Of a DNA stretch of 37,345 bases, positions 433-10,459 are shown piece after piece. Source of the stretch: an uncultured Alphaproteobacteria bacterium (GTDB lineage: Bacteria; Pseudomonadota; Alphaproteobacteria; Thalassobaculales; Thalassobaculaceae). The stretch's first letter is position 1; every line of letters starts with the position of its first letter. Made by a program: the position numbers and the translations under genes. Below the pieces are notes generated by a model. It saw only the letters and a program-made list of their open reading frames with translations, ran no database searches and had not been told where the DNA came from. The stretch is from the NCBI GenBank assembly GCA_902589475.1, contig CACITD010000024.1, positions 1 through 37,345 of the forward strand, read 5' to 3'.

Positions 433-2169
433 CTAGATTGTATAGAAATTTATTCCGAGAATAATACGTTTTTTCAACCCATTGTAATGTGCTGAATGCA
501 TCCTGCTTGCTGGAAAAATTATGAGGTCACCGTTGTTGGGCTGAATTACAATATCGGGTTGATGGAGACTTAAATTTCCTGGTTGGTCGGCCCCAATATC
601 CCCAACCTCGACATAGTAAACCGCAGCATATTTTACAGAGTGCAGATTAAACTCGTTATCCCACTTATTGAGATGGTGATGAGGGGTAGCCGCCGAGCGG
701 CCCTGATAGATAGCAAAAAAAGAGTCCTCGATGAAAATTTTACTGCGAAATATTTCCGAAACAGTATTTGTAAACCTTTCCTCAAATAGTTTTATAGTTG
801 GATCACTTGATGTAAAAAGATTGAAGCCTCGACTGTGTTTAACTCCTCCCTTTCGTATGTCAGACGCTGATTTATTCTCCGCCACATACTTCTCATGTTC
901 GGGACTTAATGATGGCAAGGAGCCCAACACTTTTGGTAGATTCTCACCCACTGATATATTGGCGCGTAAAAATCCAGAGTCTTTATTGAAGCAAGATTTG
1001 TTGTCGGGTACTCCCAATTGATTTGAGTTAGTTTGGGATAGAGACAGGTTTAAGTGCTTTAAATAAACCTTTTCAATTCCATTTTCATTTCTAAGCAGCT
1101 CAACTATACGATAAAGCGGCCATGCTTTTTTTTGATAACCCTCAGAATGAAATGCCATCGCAAGTTCTAAGTAAGCGTCCACAAAATCTGGTCGTAAGGT
1201 TATAACTTTCAAATAGTGTTCGATGCCTTTTCTGTACTTTTTTATTTTTATCAAAGTACGAGCCAAATTAAAATGGACCTCCGGGTGATCTGGATTAAGA
1301 TTAATTGCTTCGCCATAATGGCGTATTGCCAAATCAAACTTACCGAGTATGTCACTTAGCATAGCTAAATTATTATGCGCCTGTGCATAATCAGGTCTTA
1401 GCTCGATTACTTTGCTGTAACAGAGAACAGCTTCTGACAGTCTATCAACCTCGCTTAATACGACGCCGAGATTATAATGAGCATCTATATAATCTGATTT
1501 GAGCTCGATTGCCTTTTTATAGCTAATAATCGCTTCCTGAAACCTACCCAATTCATTAAAGGCATTTCCAAGGTTGTTATGAGCCTGAACGTTTTGGGGA
1601 CCTAATTCAATAGCTTTATTATAATACTCTATAGCGGACACATGTTCGCCTACGCTAGATTTAATAGTTCCAATAAAATTTGGGACATTAGGGTCTTTTG
1701 GGAATTGTTCTAAAAGTTTTATCCCAATGTTTAACGCTTTTTGAAAATCACCCTGCTGATAGAGTGAAATCAGTTCCGAGGCGCGTTCTGAGGGCACCAA
1801 ATCGTGCTTGGCGTTTGACGAAAGTTGTCTTTCAAAGTGATCAACTGCATCCCCTTTCAAACCTCTCTCACGTCCTTGCATTAATAGTTTGCGCGCGTTG
1901 CTAATTTGATTCAATTTTATCAAAGCGTCGATGTAGCTTATCCAATATTGATGTTGGTTTACATCAGCTTCTAATGCGGTTTGAAAGTGTGGAAGTGCAA
2001 GTGAAGCTTTTCCTAACCCGACCTTAAGAACACCCAAATTGTGATTTGCGATGCCATTTTTAGGATGCGATCTTAGTATAGATCTATATATTTTTTCAGC
2101 TTCCTGAAAACGACCATTCTGATGTGCGGACATTGCTCGCCGTAGGAATTTTTCTAAGTTCGGTTTCAT
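433..2169 (-). CDS. TPR-repeat protein with C-terminal 2OG-Fe(II) oxygenase-like domain
   Basis: Residues 1 to about 355 are a run of tetratricopeptide repeats: the pattern of A-x-N-N-L-G, then A-I-x-x-Y-x-x-A-I-E-L, then P recurs about every 34 residues, clearest at 165-330. Residues about 400-578 look like the putative 2OG-Fe(II) oxygenase domain often found after TPRs in marine bacteria. Candidate metal ligands are the His triplet at 497-499 in TPHHHLNKWD and the His residues of MHSAHYNG (558, 561), with R568 or a neighbour as a possible 2-oxoglutarate anchor. There is no signal peptide, so it is probably cytosolic. TPRs usually bind a partner protein; the substrate is unknown. The ATG at 2169 has only a weak ribosome binding site. 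It is transcribed divergently from the cupin gene. The TPR part is certain; the enzyme activity is inferred. Confidence 0.8.
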   Translation of the reverse strand: MKPNLEKFLRRAMSAHQNGRFQEAEKIYRSILRSHPKNGIANHNLGVLKVGLGKASLALPHFQTALEADVNQHQYWISYIDALIKLNQISNARKLLMQGRERGLKGDAVDHFERQLSSNAKHDLVPSERASELISLYQQGDFQKALNIGIKLLEQFPKDPNVPNFIGTIKSSVGEHVSAIEYYNKAIELGPQNVQAHNNLGNAFNELGRFQEAIISYKKAIELKSDYIDAHYNLGVVLSEVDRLSEAVLCYSKVIELRPDYAQAHNNLAMLSDILGKFDLAIRHYGEAINLNPDHPEVHFNLARTLIKIKKYRKGIEHYLKVITLRPDFVDAYLELAMAFHSEGYQKKAWPLYRIVELLRNENGIEKVYLKHLNLSLSQTNSNQLGVPDNKSCFNKDSGFLRANISVGENLPKVLGSLPSLSPEHEKYVAENKSASDIRKGGVKHSRGFNLFTSSDPTIKLFEERFTNTVSEIFRSKIFIEDSFFAIYQGRSAATPHHHLNKWDNEFNLHSVKYAAVYYVEVGDIGADQPGNLSLHQPDIVIQPNNGDLIIFPASRMHSAHYNGLKKRIILGINFYTI

Positions 2170-2962: not shown

Positions 2963-3138
2963 GCATCTGTGAAGATCGGCTGGGACCCATCACTTCCTTA
3001 ATGACCAGAGAGGGGGAAATTGTCCCTGGGGCTGCCCGAAGTGGTAACCTCTGCCAGGAGGTTTGATGAACCTGACAGATGCTGGGTCCCTCATTATAAC
3101 GCTGCGAGCCGCTCGCTGCGGGAAGGAGGGGCAGCCTC
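2963..3138. ncRNA. Candidate structured RNA: three-way junction, hairpin and pseudoknot; strand undecided
   Basis: The 308 bases between the cupin and OmpA genes (2830-3137) hold no complete gene. The left part is AT-rich. From about 2963 the composition jumps to about 58% G+C and complementary segments appear. P1 is GGGACCCA (2982-2989) with TGGGTCCC (3083-3090). It encloses P2, CACTTC (2991-2996) with GAAGTG (3038-3043). P2 encloses P3, CCAG (3005-3008) with CTGG (3026-3029). P1 also encloses P4, CTGCCAGG (3051-3058) with CCTGACAG (3071-3078). P5 is a 9-bp hairpin with one mismatch (3100-3108 with 3112-3120). GGCTGCCC (3030-3037), left single-stranded, matches GGGCAGCC (3129-3136) as a pseudoknot. 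An alternative helix GCATCTGT (2963-2970) with ACAGATGC (3075-3082) would compete with P4. The one imperfect pair in P4 is A-C on the + strand but G-U on the - strand, while extending the pseudoknot favours +. Alternatives are a decayed coding fragment (an open + frame from about 2900 to 3066) or a palindromic element. Confidence 0.4.
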
Positions 3139-3989
3139 TAAAAGTTCATTTTGATCAATATTTCAGATCGTCTATTACGAGGTTCACTTTGACCATCAGC
3201 AGTTGGGATGGCAGGCGCTGTCTCGCCTTCTGCCGATACCCCTATAGATCGATCACCTATGCCATAATCAGATAAAGCTCGATGAACACCAATGGCTCTC
3301 TCAACAGATAGATTATGATTATATCGTTCTGTACCGGTTCGATCTGCATGACCCACTACGGTCAGTGAGACTTTGTCATGCATTGGTATACGGCCTACTT
3401 CTGCAGACAGGTATGCCTGATCTTCAGGAGATATGTCTGAGCTATCGTGATCATAGTAAATAACGATCTTGCGTTCTGCCTCAGCTTCATCTGTGATGGT
3501 TAGGCCAACTTTCTCCTGTATACGGTCCATAGCCATTTCAAATCGGTCACGGCATGTTTTTATGTGTTCGTATTGCCATCCCTCTTCAGCCTGTTCTACC
3601 CAGCAGTCAAAGCCAACGACAGCTTCAGCCGTCGCTTCGGGTAGTGTGTCCTTTACTCCCATCTTCAAGGCTGTCGCCAATCGCCTGGATGCTCTGGTTA
3701 AATCATGCTTGAAAGGCTCTTTGATATACCAGTCATCCAACTTTTCCGGTCCCGGGGTATCTTTTCTATCCAGAACGTTCATCGCCTTGGTTGCAAAGTA
3801 ACCAGCATCATAATAGTCAACCATCTCATTTGCTTCGTAGTTGACGATTTCTTTGTATTTATTTGCTAACTGGCTTTTGTAATCCGTTCCCGGGATCACT
3901 CGCTCGCTCAGCTTTGCGATATTCATATGATCGCAAGCAACCAGCATCACCGATGCAAACCCCACTAACATTAATTTTACTGCAGACAT
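3138..3989 (-). CDS. OmpA-family outer-membrane lipoprotein
   Basis: The N-terminus is a lipoprotein signal: a hydrophobic segment ending in the lipobox LVAC with Cys19 as the lipidated residue. Residues 20 to about 165 are a family-specific region I do not recognise. Residues about 172-283 are an OmpA C-terminal peptidoglycan-binding domain: IVIYYDHDSSDIS begins it, VVGHADRTGT (211-220) carries the conserved Asp216, and ERAIGVHRAL and RNRRSEI (271-277) complete it. It probably tethers the outer membrane to peptidoglycan, as Pal-like proteins do, though it lies outside a tol-pal cluster. The ATG start has a good ribosome binding site (AAGGAG, about 6 bases upstream). The TAG stop lies two bases from one strand of the candidate RNA pseudoknot. 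Confidence 0.9.
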   Translation of the reverse strand: MSAVKLMLVGFASVMLVACDHMNIAKLSERVIPGTDYKSQLANKYKEIVNYEANEMVDYYDAGYFATKAMNVLDRKDTPGPEKLDDWYIKEPFKHDLTRASRRLATALKMGVKDTLPEATAEAVVGFDCWVEQAEEGWQYEHIKTCRDRFEMAMDRIQEKVGLTITDEAEAERKIVIYYDHDSSDISPEDQAYLSAEVGRIPMHDKVSLTVVGHADRTGTERYNHNLSVERAIGVHRALSDYGIGDRSIGVSAEGETAPAIPTADGQSEPRNRRSEILIKMNF

Positions 3990-4099
3990 TTCGATCTCCT
4001 TCTTTAAGAGATCTCAAACTACCGAATGAAAATGCTAATGCTTTGTTCAGATAAAGTTTATTCAATGGCAAAGCGCGGCCAAAATAAGGCAAGGCACCA

Positions 4100-7162: not shown

Positions 7163-10100
7163 TCAAAGTAGAACATCGGTTTCTACGGAGTAAGTTCCAA
7201 CTGACTGTGCCAAGAGCCCCATATTTGAAATGATGTCCAAGTAATAACTGCCATTTGTGGGAGCCGTATATGCAATACTCGCGTCAAAAGCTGTTCCACT
7301 GTCATCATCCTGGGCCACCAAAACTCCGTCTGCGTTATATAGGAAAGCTTGCGGATCCCAAAGTGTGCCGTGCGAACTGTTAGAACCACGCACGTCGAAT
7401 TGGTATGATGTTCCTGCTTCCAAAATAAATTGATAAATATCTCGGTCATTTTGAAAATCGATAGCGCCTCCAAAGATAGTATCCAATGGTGTTATTGGCG
7501 CATGTTCCTGGGTCTGTCCGATTAAGTCACCCAATGAGCTTGTCGATATCCCTGATTGCAGCACGTCAATTTGATAAGTGCCGGTTTGACTTGAACTAAA
7601 AGCTCCTGCCTCTAAAAAAACTTCCCCGGAGCCTGAGGTCGTGAAAGATAGTGAACTCTCGAGTCCAGTTCCACCATCATCATTTTGTGCTAGCACTCTG
7701 CTATCTGCATCGAGAACACGCAGCAATGGATCAGCTAACGTTCCTAATCCGGATGCGGATCCTCGTAAGTCGATCTGATATGTACCACCCGCAGTTACAC
7801 TAAGAGAGTAAACATCTTTGTCACCGCCCGTCTCAAGATCTCCTGCAACAGGTGTTCCAGAAGAAATCGCTATCAAACCAGAACCGGGTGTGTCGGCCAC
7901 ATCACCCCCGCTGGAACTTGATCCCACAGAAATCTCATAAGTACCCGTGTTCGCTCCAAACGCGCCAGCCTCGACATAAACAGCTCCAGTACTTGTTGGA
8001 GTATACGAAATCTGAGATTCTAATCGAAAACCACCATCATCATTCTGAGCAAGAATATTTCCATCAGGATCTCTTAATGTAAGTAACGTGTCTCGTAAGG
8101 TACCAACCGATGAGAAAAAACCTTTTTGATCAATTGTGTAGGTTGTTCCCGCTGTCACAGAAAGAGAAAAAACGTCTATATCTCTAGCTTCCTCTATATC
8201 TCCAGTTTGCGCCGAACCAATAATTAAACTGGAGTTGTTTCCAATGTCATTAGGTTGATCGTCCCCGCCTGAGACACTAGCGACATCGATTTGATAGGTG
8301 CCCGTCTGTCGTGAGCTAAAAGCTCCTGCCTCTATATATATAGTTCCAGATGAAGCTGCGGTGTATTCAAGCTTTGACTCAAAACCTGTTCCGCTATCAT
8401 CATCCTGCGCCAAAGTTGTACCATTAGCATCAATTAGGCGGACAAGAGGATCAGAGAGTGTGCCTAAGGATGATGGGGATCCCCTAAGATCGATTTGATA
8501 AGTTGCTCCAGCATCCACTGATAAAGAAAATACATCTTTATCTCCGCCGGTTTCTAACTCTCCAGTCGCGGCCGTCCCAACTGCAAGAGCAGCATTATTG
8601 CCGATTGAATCTGGATGGTCATCCGAACTTTCGGGGGGTGTTGGTGAAGGGGTTGTTGGAGCTGATGGAGGAGCACCCGAGACAAGGCTTGAAAGGGCAT
8701 TGACATCAACTACTCTGTATGTACCTCCTGTAGCCGGATCTGATAAAGTTGATGCCGACTGCGTTAAAAATGTTTCAAAATCATCTACTGACAGGTTGGG
8801 GTTGAGCTGACGCATCAACGAAGAAACACCGGCTACATAAGGCGAAGCCATGCTTGTCCCGCTAAGCGTTTGGGTCGCTGCACCTGCTCCTGGCGCGGCA
8901 TTGGTAATGAAAGTGCCTGGAGCAAATACCGCAGTAAGTGTCTCACTTCTTTGCGAATAGGACGCGGCACCCTCATTTGCACTATCTAATGCACTTATTG
9001 CAAGCGCATTTGGGTCTATAGCAGGATCACCTAAACCCTGTGCATTAAAAGTTCCAAAACTATTTCCGGCTGCGGCAAAAGTTATTACGCCCATAGAGCG
9101 GAGGGCTGCAAGTTCATCGGAGATTAGGCCTGCCGCTGACTCTATATTGGAGTTACTCCCATCACCCAACGATAAGTTAACGGACGTGATATTGAGAGCG
9201 GAAGCGTTACTTATAACCCATTGCAAACCTGCTTCCACACTTGAAGTGAAGCCACCATTCGCACCCAACACTTGAATGGCGGCAACATTTGCCCCAGGCG
9301 CGACCCCTGGTAATGATGTATCAGACGACATCGCTATTCCCGAGACGTGCGTTCCATGTCCGTCAGGATCCGATGCTCCGTTCCCGTCACCGTGAAAATC
9401 CTGCGAAGCCACAATTTTATCTGAAATTCCATCCCCATTTGCGTCACTGCCAAAGAATGGGTGGTCCAGGTCGATGCCAGTGTCTAAAACGGCTATCGTT
9501 GTACCTGACCCGTCAATCGAGGGATTATTTGCCTGAAAACTCGTCAAATTAGTCGCATTGGAGGCCGTAGCTAATGGCTGCAACGATCCCGTTGACTGTG
9601 AGACTGGGCTATTTGTCACAATGCCGCCAACTGATGACGTTTCAATTGACATGAGAGCGGCTAGTGACTTTTCTGTTAAGATCCCTGCTTCTGCCTTAGA
9701 ATTGCTATCATTAGCCGTTACAACGAAGTTAGAAGTTAGTTGACTGGTGCCGTCGTCTGCAAGAACAGAAATCGTGGTAGAAGGAAGTCCTTCTTTGAGC
9801 GTGTAACCATAAATTTGACCTGTGTTCTCATTGAACCCTAGATACTCAGGAAGTTCCGTCCCATCCGGGGACATAGCTGTCATTGACACGCGAGCTAACC
9901 CCGCCGATGAAAACTGCGACATATCGCCGATCTTTATATTGATTGCGCCATCTCCCGACAAATCGACACCCGAAAAAGGCAGGTTCAATGAGATCGTTGA
10001 AGTAGCACTCGCAACCTGTGCCGCCTCTCTAGCGTCAACAACGCCGCCATAACCTATAATACCCTCTGAGTTGTAATTTCCATCGGCCTGGAGGGTCTCA

Positions 10101-10459
10101 ATCTCAGCTCTATCCGCTGTATAATGGTGATTGCCAGTTTCTGTATTTAAAAATCTATGAATTGCCTGAGAGCCTGCCACTTCCTCACTCAGCAAGTTGA
10201 ACACAACACCTTCTTCAACGAAGTTGCTATCATTTCTCAACGCTGATATTTCATTTATATCAGCAGTAAAAACATGATCATTCGTGTTCGAATTTAGAAA
10301 CCTAAAAATTTGCAGGTCACCGCTCTCAAAACCTTCAAAAGCAGCCTTGCGAGATAAGCTTTGGTCCAGCGTAGTACCCTCGGCCTCGTTTGCATAATGC
10401 AGGAAACCCTCACCGTTTGAGTATTGAATTATTAGCTCATTATAACTTTTTGCGGGCAT
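7163..10459 (-). CDS. Large secreted-type subtilisin-like serine protease with C-terminal PPC-like repeats
   Basis: A 1098-residue multidomain protein. Residues about 1-140 contain a motif (F-R-F-L-N-x-x-T-x-x-H-x-x-T-A-D) at 51 and again at 101, like the DUF5648 family. About 155-250 look like a putative Ig-type fold. About 315-590 is a peptidase S8 domain with all catalytic residues: Asp326 in VLDTGID, His368 in DGHGTHVSG, Asn466 in AAAGNS and Ser536 in SGTSMASP. A Ser/Pro-rich linker (595-615) leads to four PPC-like beta domains (about 615-728, 735-846, 855-968, 990-1095), each with DxDVFSLSV-, TYQIDLRG- and QDDDSG-like segments. There is no N-terminal Sec signal, so export would be by another route, perhaps type I; no transporter is nearby and no RTX nonapeptides are seen. 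The ribosome binding site AAAGGA lies 8 bases before the ATG. A CRP-type palindrome lies upstream. Confidence 0.92.
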   Translation of the reverse strand: MPAKSYNELIIQYSNGEGFLHYANEAEGTTLDQSLSRKAAFEGFESGDLQIFRFLNSNTNDHVFTADINEISALRNDSNFVEEGVVFNLLSEEVAGSQAIHRFLNTETGNHHYTADRAEIETLQADGNYNSEGIIGYGGVVDAREAAQVASATSTISLNLPFSGVDLSGDGAINIKIGDMSQFSSAGLARVSMTAMSPDGTELPEYLGFNENTGQIYGYTLKEGLPSTTISVLADDGTSQLTSNFVVTANDSNSKAEAGILTEKSLAALMSIETSSVGGIVTNSPVSQSTGSLQPLATASNATNLTSFQANNPSIDGSGTTIAVLDTGIDLDHPFFGSDANGDGISDKIVASQDFHGDGNGASDPDGHGTHVSGIAMSSDTSLPGVAPGANVAAIQVLGANGGFTSSVEAGLQWVISNASALNITSVNLSLGDGSNSNIESAAGLISDELAALRSMGVITFAAAGNSFGTFNAQGLGDPAIDPNALAISALDSANEGAASYSQRSETLTAVFAPGTFITNAAPGAGAATQTLSGTSMASPYVAGVSSLMRQLNPNLSVDDFETFLTQSASTLSDPATGGTYRVVDVNALSSLVSGAPPSAPTTPSPTPPESSDDHPDSIGNNAALAVGTAATGELETGGDKDVFSLSVDAGATYQIDLRGSPSSLGTLSDPLVRLIDANGTTLAQDDDSGTGFESKLEYTAASSGTIYIEAGAFSSRQTGTYQIDVASVSGGDDQPNDIGNNSSLIIGSAQTGDIEEARDIDVFSLSVTAGTTYTIDQKGFFSSVGTLRDTLLTLRDPDGNILAQNDDGGFRLESQISYTPTSTGAVYVEAGAFGANTGTYEISVGSSSSGGDVADTPGSGLIAISSGTPVAGDLETGGDKDVYSLSVTAGGTYQIDLRGSASGLGTLADPLLRVLDADSRVLAQNDDGGTGLESSLSFTTSGSGEVFLEAGAFSSSQTGTYQIDVLQSGISTSSLGDLIGQTQEHAPITPLDTIFGGAIDFQNDRDIYQFILEAGTSYQFDVRGSNSSHGTLWDPQAFLYNADGVLVAQDDDSGTAFDASIAYTAPTNGSYYLDIISNMGLLAQSVGTYSVETDVLL
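7175..8617 (-). repeat. Four tandem PPC-like domain repeats inside the protease gene
   Basis: Domains encoded at about 8276-8617, 7922-8257, 7556-7897 and 7175-7492 are homologous. Copies 1 and 3 are closest: both begin with the same 11 residues LETGGDKDV(F/Y)S and end with QTGTYQIDV, which points to a recent duplication. Copy 4 is the most divergent and lies after a linker of about 20 residues. Each copy has an Asp-rich D-D-D/D-D-G loop that could bind calcium; that last point is inference. Confidence 0.8.

What the first reader, a model, noticed from the sequence alone, without database searches (positions are those of the whole stretch)
2963..3138. Candidate structured RNA (three-way junction plus pseudoknot) between convergent genes
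Nested and crossing 8-base complementarities fit one consistent fold: P1 2982-2989/3083-3090; inside it P2 2991-2996/3038-3043 with P3, and P4 3051-3058/3071-3078; then hairpin P5 3100-3120; then a pseudoknot joining 3030-3037 (left free between P3 and P2) to 3129-3136. An extra helix 2963-2970/3075-3082 excludes P4, as in a switch. The block is GC-rich in an AT-rich setting and has no complete gene. I do not recognise the family. Fragments on the + strand (GGGAA, CTGCCC, GCCAGGAG) faintly recall cobalamin riboswitches, but the core order is incomplete and no gene follows on that strand.
Basis: partly seen in the sequence, partly recalled or inferred. Interest (0 to 1): 0.65.

Follow-up and report, generated by a model that had tools for sequence, protein, structure and literature searches.

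The report
Folded RNA after a lipoprotein gene
Directly after the stop codon of an OmpA-type lipoprotein gene in an alphaproteobacterium lies a conserved, knotted RNA fold of about 160 nucleotides that matches no known RNA family; it is probably part of that gene's own message, and its function has not been tested.

Summary
The structure is real, but probably on the other strand. Two related genomes of a second genus carry a homologue (L003, L004) at the same place, 0-1 nt after the stop codon of the orthologous OmpA-family lipoprotein gene; the other neighbours differ. The RNA is 67% identical across genera, while four-fold sites of the adjacent gene are only 34% identical, so it is under selection. 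P1, P2, P3, P5 and the 7-8 bp pseudoknot all hold: 96% of pair cells are canonical and 7 pairs have compensatory changes (0 of 500 shuffles).

The minus strand (OmpA mRNA 3' UTR) fits better: P3 and P4 keep G·U pairs that would be C·A on plus, and the conserved fold lies 1.1-2.3 kcal/mol above the MFE in all three sequences, against 4.8-11.2 on plus. The proposed 'switch' helix is not conserved; nothing cobalamin-like was found.

No Rfam family matches. Covariance models found no further copy in samples of 385 class and 398 phylum genomes. I read it as a new, lineage-restricted 3'-UTR RNA; an exposed CUCCUU (anti-Shine-Dalgarno) linker suggests mRNA or sRNA regulation. Transcription and function are untested, and the covariation rests on effectively two lineages.

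The parts
3138..3989 (-). OmpA-family lipoprotein gene, 283 aa, stop codon TAG at 3140-3138
   Evidence: Pfam OmpA E=3.6e-13
2975..3136 (-). conserved structured RNA, read as the OmpA 3' UTR
   Evidence: homologues L003:1509-1684 and L004:1133-1308; covariation
3129..3136 (-). PK1a, 5' strand of the pseudoknot (GGCUGCCC)
   Evidence: pairs with 3030-3037; 7-8 bp kept in all three sequences
3030..3037 (-). PK1b, 3' strand of the pseudoknot (GGGCAGCC)
3123..3128 (-). CUCCUU linker, anti-Shine-Dalgarno-like, present in all three sequences
   Evidence: about 10% by chance per sequence
3100..3120 (-). hairpin P5, two compensatory pairs; loop CGGCU could pair with tail AGCCG at 2981-2977
3094..3099 (-). 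conserved unpaired linker UUAUAA
3083..3090 (-). P1, 5' strand
   Evidence: pairs with 2982-2989, two compensatory pairs, one mismatch in the homologues
3050..3079 (-). P4 domain, stem 3079-3071/3058-3050, variable in the homologues
3038..3043 (-). P2, 5' strand
   Evidence: pairs with 2991-2996, one compensatory pair
3005..3029 (-). hairpin P3, stem 3029-3023/3011-3005, two compensatory pairs; 7 bp on minus only
2991..2996 (-). P2, 3' strand
2982..2989 (-). P1, 3' strand
2975..2981 (-). conserved 3' tail AGCCGA
   Evidence: 8/9 identical in the tail
3996..4002 (-). OmpA Shine-Dalgarno GAAGGAG, complementary to the CUCCUU linker
   Evidence: sequence; pairing not tested

Best explanation
The element is a structured RNA in the 3' UTR of the OmpA-family lipoprotein mRNA (minus strand). 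It runs in the order PK1a - P5 - P1a - P4 - P2a - PK1b - P3 - P2b - P1b - tail and starts immediately after the stop codon. Shown: conserved sequence, compensatory pairing, linkage to the OmpA gene, better fit of the minus strand. Inferred: it is transcribed with OmpA (no credible intrinsic terminator was found near its ends). Inferred: the pseudoknot closes once the last ribosome has left the stop codon, giving a compact 3' end that resists 3'-5' decay, or a processed stable 3' fragment. Inferred: its exposed CU-rich segments (linker CUCCUU, P3 loop) pair with Shine-Dalgarno sequences, of OmpA itself or of other mRNAs, to tune envelope-protein synthesis. The confidence given is for 'OmpA-strand 3'-UTR regulatory or stability RNA'; the anti-SD step alone I put at about 0.3.
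For: Homologues in two genomes of another genus at the same place relative to OmpA, with a different convergent gene and, where it can be read, a different upstream gene. RNA identity 67.5% against 34% at four-fold sites and about 52-54% in forced alignments of flanking DNA. Named minus-strand structure: 96.2% of cells paired, 7 pairs with double changes against 2.6 shuffled (0/500), and sliding the partner destroys it. Strand: P3 is 7 bp on minus and broken on plus; P4 keeps G·U on minus; constrained fold within 1.1, 2.3 and 1.6 kcal/mol of the MFE on minus against 4.8, 11.2 and 7.2 on plus. Distance to the OmpA stop fixed at 0-1 nt; distance to the other gene 4 nt or 146 nt. CUCCUU in all three. 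3'-UTR-derived sRNAs cut near stop codons are known (PMC9438474), and so is 3'-UTR anti-RBS pairing in icaR (PMC7821165).
Against: No transcription data. Effectively two independent lineages (L003 and L004 are about 99% identical to each other), so covariation is limited. P5's top pair in L003/L004 is G·U on plus and A·C on minus, which favours plus. The UUAUAA linker reads as a -10-like TATAAC on plus. CUCCUU occurs in about 10% of shuffles per sequence. Four genomes of the same genus, some incomplete, show neither gene nor RNA, so the RNA is probably not essential.
Confidence: 0.6

Rival explanations
1. An independent plus-strand noncoding RNA in the intergenic space, with its own promoter or cut from the convergent gene's transcript.
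For: The same helices form on plus with 95% of cells paired; P5's top pair is G·U on plus; the region lies 3' of other plus-strand genes.
Against: P3 and P4 are mismatched on plus; the conserved fold is 4.8-11.2 kcal/mol above the MFE on plus; no promoter match directly upstream and no terminator on plus; the plus-side neighbour gene is not conserved.
Confidence: 0.17
2. A self-cleaving ribozyme in the OmpA 3' UTR that would cut at the stop codon and release the message: on minus the helix order resembles the nested pseudoknot of HDV-like ribozymes, with PK1 as HDV P1.
For: PK1a begins directly after the stop codon; PK1a - P1a - hairpin - PK1b - hairpin - P1b follows the HDV order (structure); conserved unpaired linkers.
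Against: No match to any Rfam model at E<=5; the extra covarying helix P2 is not part of the HDV fold and P4 is far longer than HDV P3; the HDV J4/2 catalytic motif is not apparent (from memory of the family).
Confidence: 0.05
3. A bidirectional terminator or insulator between convergent genes, without any further role.
For: Convergent arrangement in all three genomes; strong GC stems.
Against: No U-tract terminator at the element's ends on either strand; the only terminator-like sites are within chance expectation and lie elsewhere; conserved unpaired linkers and a pseudoknot are not needed for termination.
Confidence: 0.13
4. Coincidence: conserved DNA of another kind (protein binding or coding) in which the helices are accidental.
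For: Only two independent lineages; nested MFE z-scores are weak.
Against: Seven compensatory pairs, 0/500 shuffles; indels are not multiples of three and no shared reading frame was seen.
Confidence: 0.05

Closest known systems
L17 downstream element (Rfam RF01708)
   Same: An orphan structured RNA in the potential 3' UTR of one gene, often with no gene directly after it; its strand was argued from G-U pairs (PMC2864571).
   Different: Found in Lactobacillales and Listeria, after ribosomal protein L17; no sequence relation, as there is no Rfam hit here.
3' UTR-derived sRNAs of alphaproteobacteria, e.g. SorX of Rhodobacter sphaeroides
   Same: RNA from the 3' end of a protein-coding mRNA; such sRNAs are often cut near the stop codon (PMC9438474).
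   Different: SorX is 75 nt and shown to be processed; the RNA here is about 160 nt with a pseudoknot, and neither transcription nor processing has been shown.
icaR 3' UTR of Staphylococcus aureus
   Same: A C/U-rich anti-RBS motif in a 3' UTR that can pair with the gene's own ribosome-binding site (PMC7821165).
   Different: No pseudoknot is mentioned in that review; for the RNA here the pairing is only a possibility.
HDV-like ribozymes
   Same: Order of the main helices on the minus strand (a nested pseudoknot starting at the 5' end); comparison from memory of the family.
   Different: Extra helix P2, long P4 domain, no obvious catalytic motif, no covariance-model match.

Membership tests
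Cobalamin riboswitch (Rfam) | Match to the covariance model | tested here: not met
   no match at gathering or at E<=5 on either strand
Cobalamin riboswitch (Rfam) | Position upstream of a regulated gene | tested here: not met
   convergent genes on both sides; none follows on either strand
HDV-like ribozyme | Match to the Rfam HDV models | tested here: not met
   no match at E<=5
HDV-like ribozyme | Nested double pseudoknot without an extra enclosing helix | tested here: not met
   a covarying helix P2 is inserted
HDV-like ribozyme | Self-cleavage | not testable with these tools
   needs in vitro transcription
Structured 3'-UTR RNA element | Fixed position after one gene, on its strand | tested here: met
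   0-1 nt after the OmpA stop in two genera; strand by G·U pairs and energy
Structured 3'-UTR RNA element | Compensatory base changes | tested here: met
   7 pairs, 0/500 shuffles, but effectively two lineages
Structured 3'-UTR RNA element | Co-transcription with the gene | not testable with these tools
   no RNA-seq available
3' UTR-derived sRNA | Discrete processed small RNA that pairs with targets | not testable with these tools
   the CUCCUU linker is only a lead
L17 downstream element (RF01708) | Match to the covariance model | tested here: not met
   no Rfam match
tRNA or tmRNA | ARAGORN or Rfam match | tested here: not met

The most novel reading that the evidence does not exclude
A new class of complex 3'-UTR RNA in bacteria. 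Its pseudoknot strand sits at the stop codon, so folding is gated by the terminating ribosome: it senses whether the upstream gene is being translated and then controls the message or releases a regulatory RNA, or is itself a new ribozyme.
Probability: 0.12. Interest if true: 0.8.

Novelty: new variant of a known kind. Interest (0 to 1): 0.47.

Why it matters
Complex, pseudoknotted RNA domains in bacterial 3' UTRs are rarely described; Weinberg et al. 2010 (PMC2864571) call regulation of a gene by a structured 3'-UTR domain highly unusual in bacteria. This one is tied to a single OmpA-type lipoprotein gene, persists where the other neighbours have changed, and places a conserved pseudoknot strand directly at the stop codon, which suggests a simple test of translation-coupled folding. 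It also shows how much the choice of strand matters when reading such motifs.

Tried and rejected
Rfam at gathering on the window and at E<=5 on both strands of the region and of L003: only chance snoRNA-like scores. tRNA/tmRNA: none. Switch helix 2963-2970/3075-3082: absent in the homologues. Weak covariance-model hits in G075, G068, G037, G059, G016, G022 and G012 (11-23 bits): partial alignments without the full fold, taken as chance. The 17-nt pattern TATAACGCTGYRAGCCG in about 85,000 species genomes: 50 hits, of which only L063 and L090 (the same two loci) carry the RNA. In viral contigs: 17 hits from two patterns, none carries it. Plasmids and phages: none. Loci of 27 more distant OmpA homologues: none carries it. 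G032 match (L035): chance similarity in a coding end beside another OmpA gene followed by an ordinary terminator-like hairpin. Stop-codon readthrough: the frame after the stop is open in the window but closes quickly in L003, so it is not conserved (from the sequence). Two early paper searches failed on wording and one later.

Full report
What was claimed. A GC-rich block between two convergent genes holds nested and crossing helices that fit a three-way junction plus a pseudoknot on the + strand.

Checking it. The sequence contains the named helices. Exact 8-bp complements number three, against 0.22 expected, P=0.001 in dinucleotide shuffles. Ordinary nested folding energy is unremarkable, so the claim needs comparative evidence. 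Rfam gives nothing at gathering thresholds over the whole window, nothing credible at E<=5 for the region, and nothing credible for a homologue. ARAGORN finds no tRNA or tmRNA.

Homologues. The window is contig C24 of a genome assembly that is 59% complete; its relatives are Alphaproteobacteria. DNA search in relatives found the region's 3' part in G020:C62 and G033:C12, another genus of the same family. Reading on from the match gave the whole element. In both genera it lies next to the orthologous OmpA lipoprotein gene (68% identical), 0-1 nt after its stop codon. The other neighbours differ. The window has a cyclopropane-synthase-like gene upstream of OmpA and a cupin gene convergent to it. 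G020 has a dehydrogenase-like gene upstream and an aspartate-dehydrogenase-like gene convergent to OmpA (my reading of the ORFs). In G033 the aspartate-dehydrogenase-like gene is likewise convergent, and its upstream side is cut by the contig end. The distance from the RNA to the convergent gene is about 146 nt in the window and 4 nt in the others. The RNA therefore stays with OmpA.

Selection. Window against L003: 67.5% identity in the RNA, 34% at four-fold degenerate sites of the neighbouring gene (a chance-like level), and about 52-54% in forced alignments of flanking DNA. Unpaired positions outside P4 are 39/53 identical and paired positions 53/70, so linkers are conserved too, notably UUAUAA, GGUCAU and the tail AGCCGA.

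Structure. On the minus alignment A3, with P3 extended to 7 bp, 96.2% are canonical and seven pairs show double changes (0 of 500 shuffles; all slides by 1 to 3 fail). These fall in P1 (2), P2 (1), P3 (2) and P5 (2). PK1 is invariant over seven pairs, which neither supports nor refutes it by covariation, but it is GC-rich (-13.5 to -16.8 kcal/mol as a duplex) and compatible with all other helices. The alignment was not fitted to the structure, but L003 and L004 are nearly identical, so this is effectively a two-lineage comparison.

Strand. P3 (G·U in the window) and P4 (G·U in the window and in L003) are intact only on minus; on plus these are C·A mismatches (and the sequences). The top of P5 argues the other way. 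Constraining the conserved helices costs 1.1, 2.3 and 1.6 kcal/mol over the MFE on minus, and 4.8, 11.2 and 7.2 on plus. With the fixed spacing to the OmpA stop, the minus strand is clearly favoured, which makes the RNA the 3' UTR of OmpA. On that strand the order is PK1a-P5-P1a-P4-P2a-PK1b-P3-P2b-P1b. P2a, PK1b and P3a are contiguous in the window, as expected for a coaxial stack (inference).

Distribution. Covariance models R1 and R2 find only these three loci in all 36 held genomes of the family and order, and only the window's own copy in 385 sampled genomes of the class and 398 of the phylum. A pattern scan of about 85,000 species genomes returned the same two outside loci. Viral contigs, phages and plasmids have none. 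Four other genomes of the window's genus, some incomplete, show neither the gene nor the RNA, and more distant OmpA genes have no such element. Metagenomes could not be searched.

Mechanism. No gene follows on either strand, so it is not a conventional riboswitch. The best reading is a 3'-UTR RNA of the OmpA message. PK1a occupies the first nucleotides after the stop codon, which a terminating ribosome would cover, so the full fold should form only when the ribosome has left (inference). It could protect the 3' end or persist as a 3'-derived sRNA; such sRNAs are often cut near stop codons (PMC9438474). The linker after PK1a holds CUCCUU in all three sequences (chance about 0.1 each), complementary to the Shine-Dalgarno sequence, including OmpA's own GAAGGAG at 4002-3996. 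Anti-RBS pairing by a 3' UTR is known for icaR (PMC7821165). This step is a lead only.

Against known kinds. The nearest described parallel is the L17 downstream element, also a structured RNA in a potential 3' UTR whose strand was argued from G-U pairs (PMC2864571); there is no sequence relation. The minus-strand order recalls HDV-like ribozymes, but an inserted covarying helix, no apparent catalytic motif and no model match speak against membership.

Verdict. A real, conserved, apparently uncatalogued RNA structure; strand reassigned to OmpA; lineage-restricted; function inferred only.

Noticed in passing
3072-3100 (+): Promoter-like CTGACA-N17-TATAAC on the plus strand inside the element. 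The -10-like TATAAC is invariant in L003/L004, the -35 is not (CTGAGC). If active it would make an RNA antisense to the OmpA 3' end.
   Followed up: partly
L164 (G033:C36:1-408) and L166 (G033:C12:281-1129): G033 carries the OmpA locus on two contigs (97% identical in protein, 94.5% in DNA), the second cut at the contig end before the RNA; a strain mixture or a duplication.
   Followed up: partly
3138-3989 and its homologues: This OmpA lipoprotein gene is sporadic: not found in four other genomes of the same genus nor in three of five of the other genus, although present with its RNA in both genera (some of these genomes are incomplete).
   Followed up: partly
433-2169 (-): 578-aa protein whose N-terminal part reads as TPR-like repeats and whose C-terminal part (PHHHLNKW...) looks like an oxygenase domain, by eye only.
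   Followed up: no
7163-10459 (-): 1098-aa subtilisin-like protease (HGTHVSG and GTSMASP motifs) with repeated C-terminal domains, by eye only.
   Followed up: no
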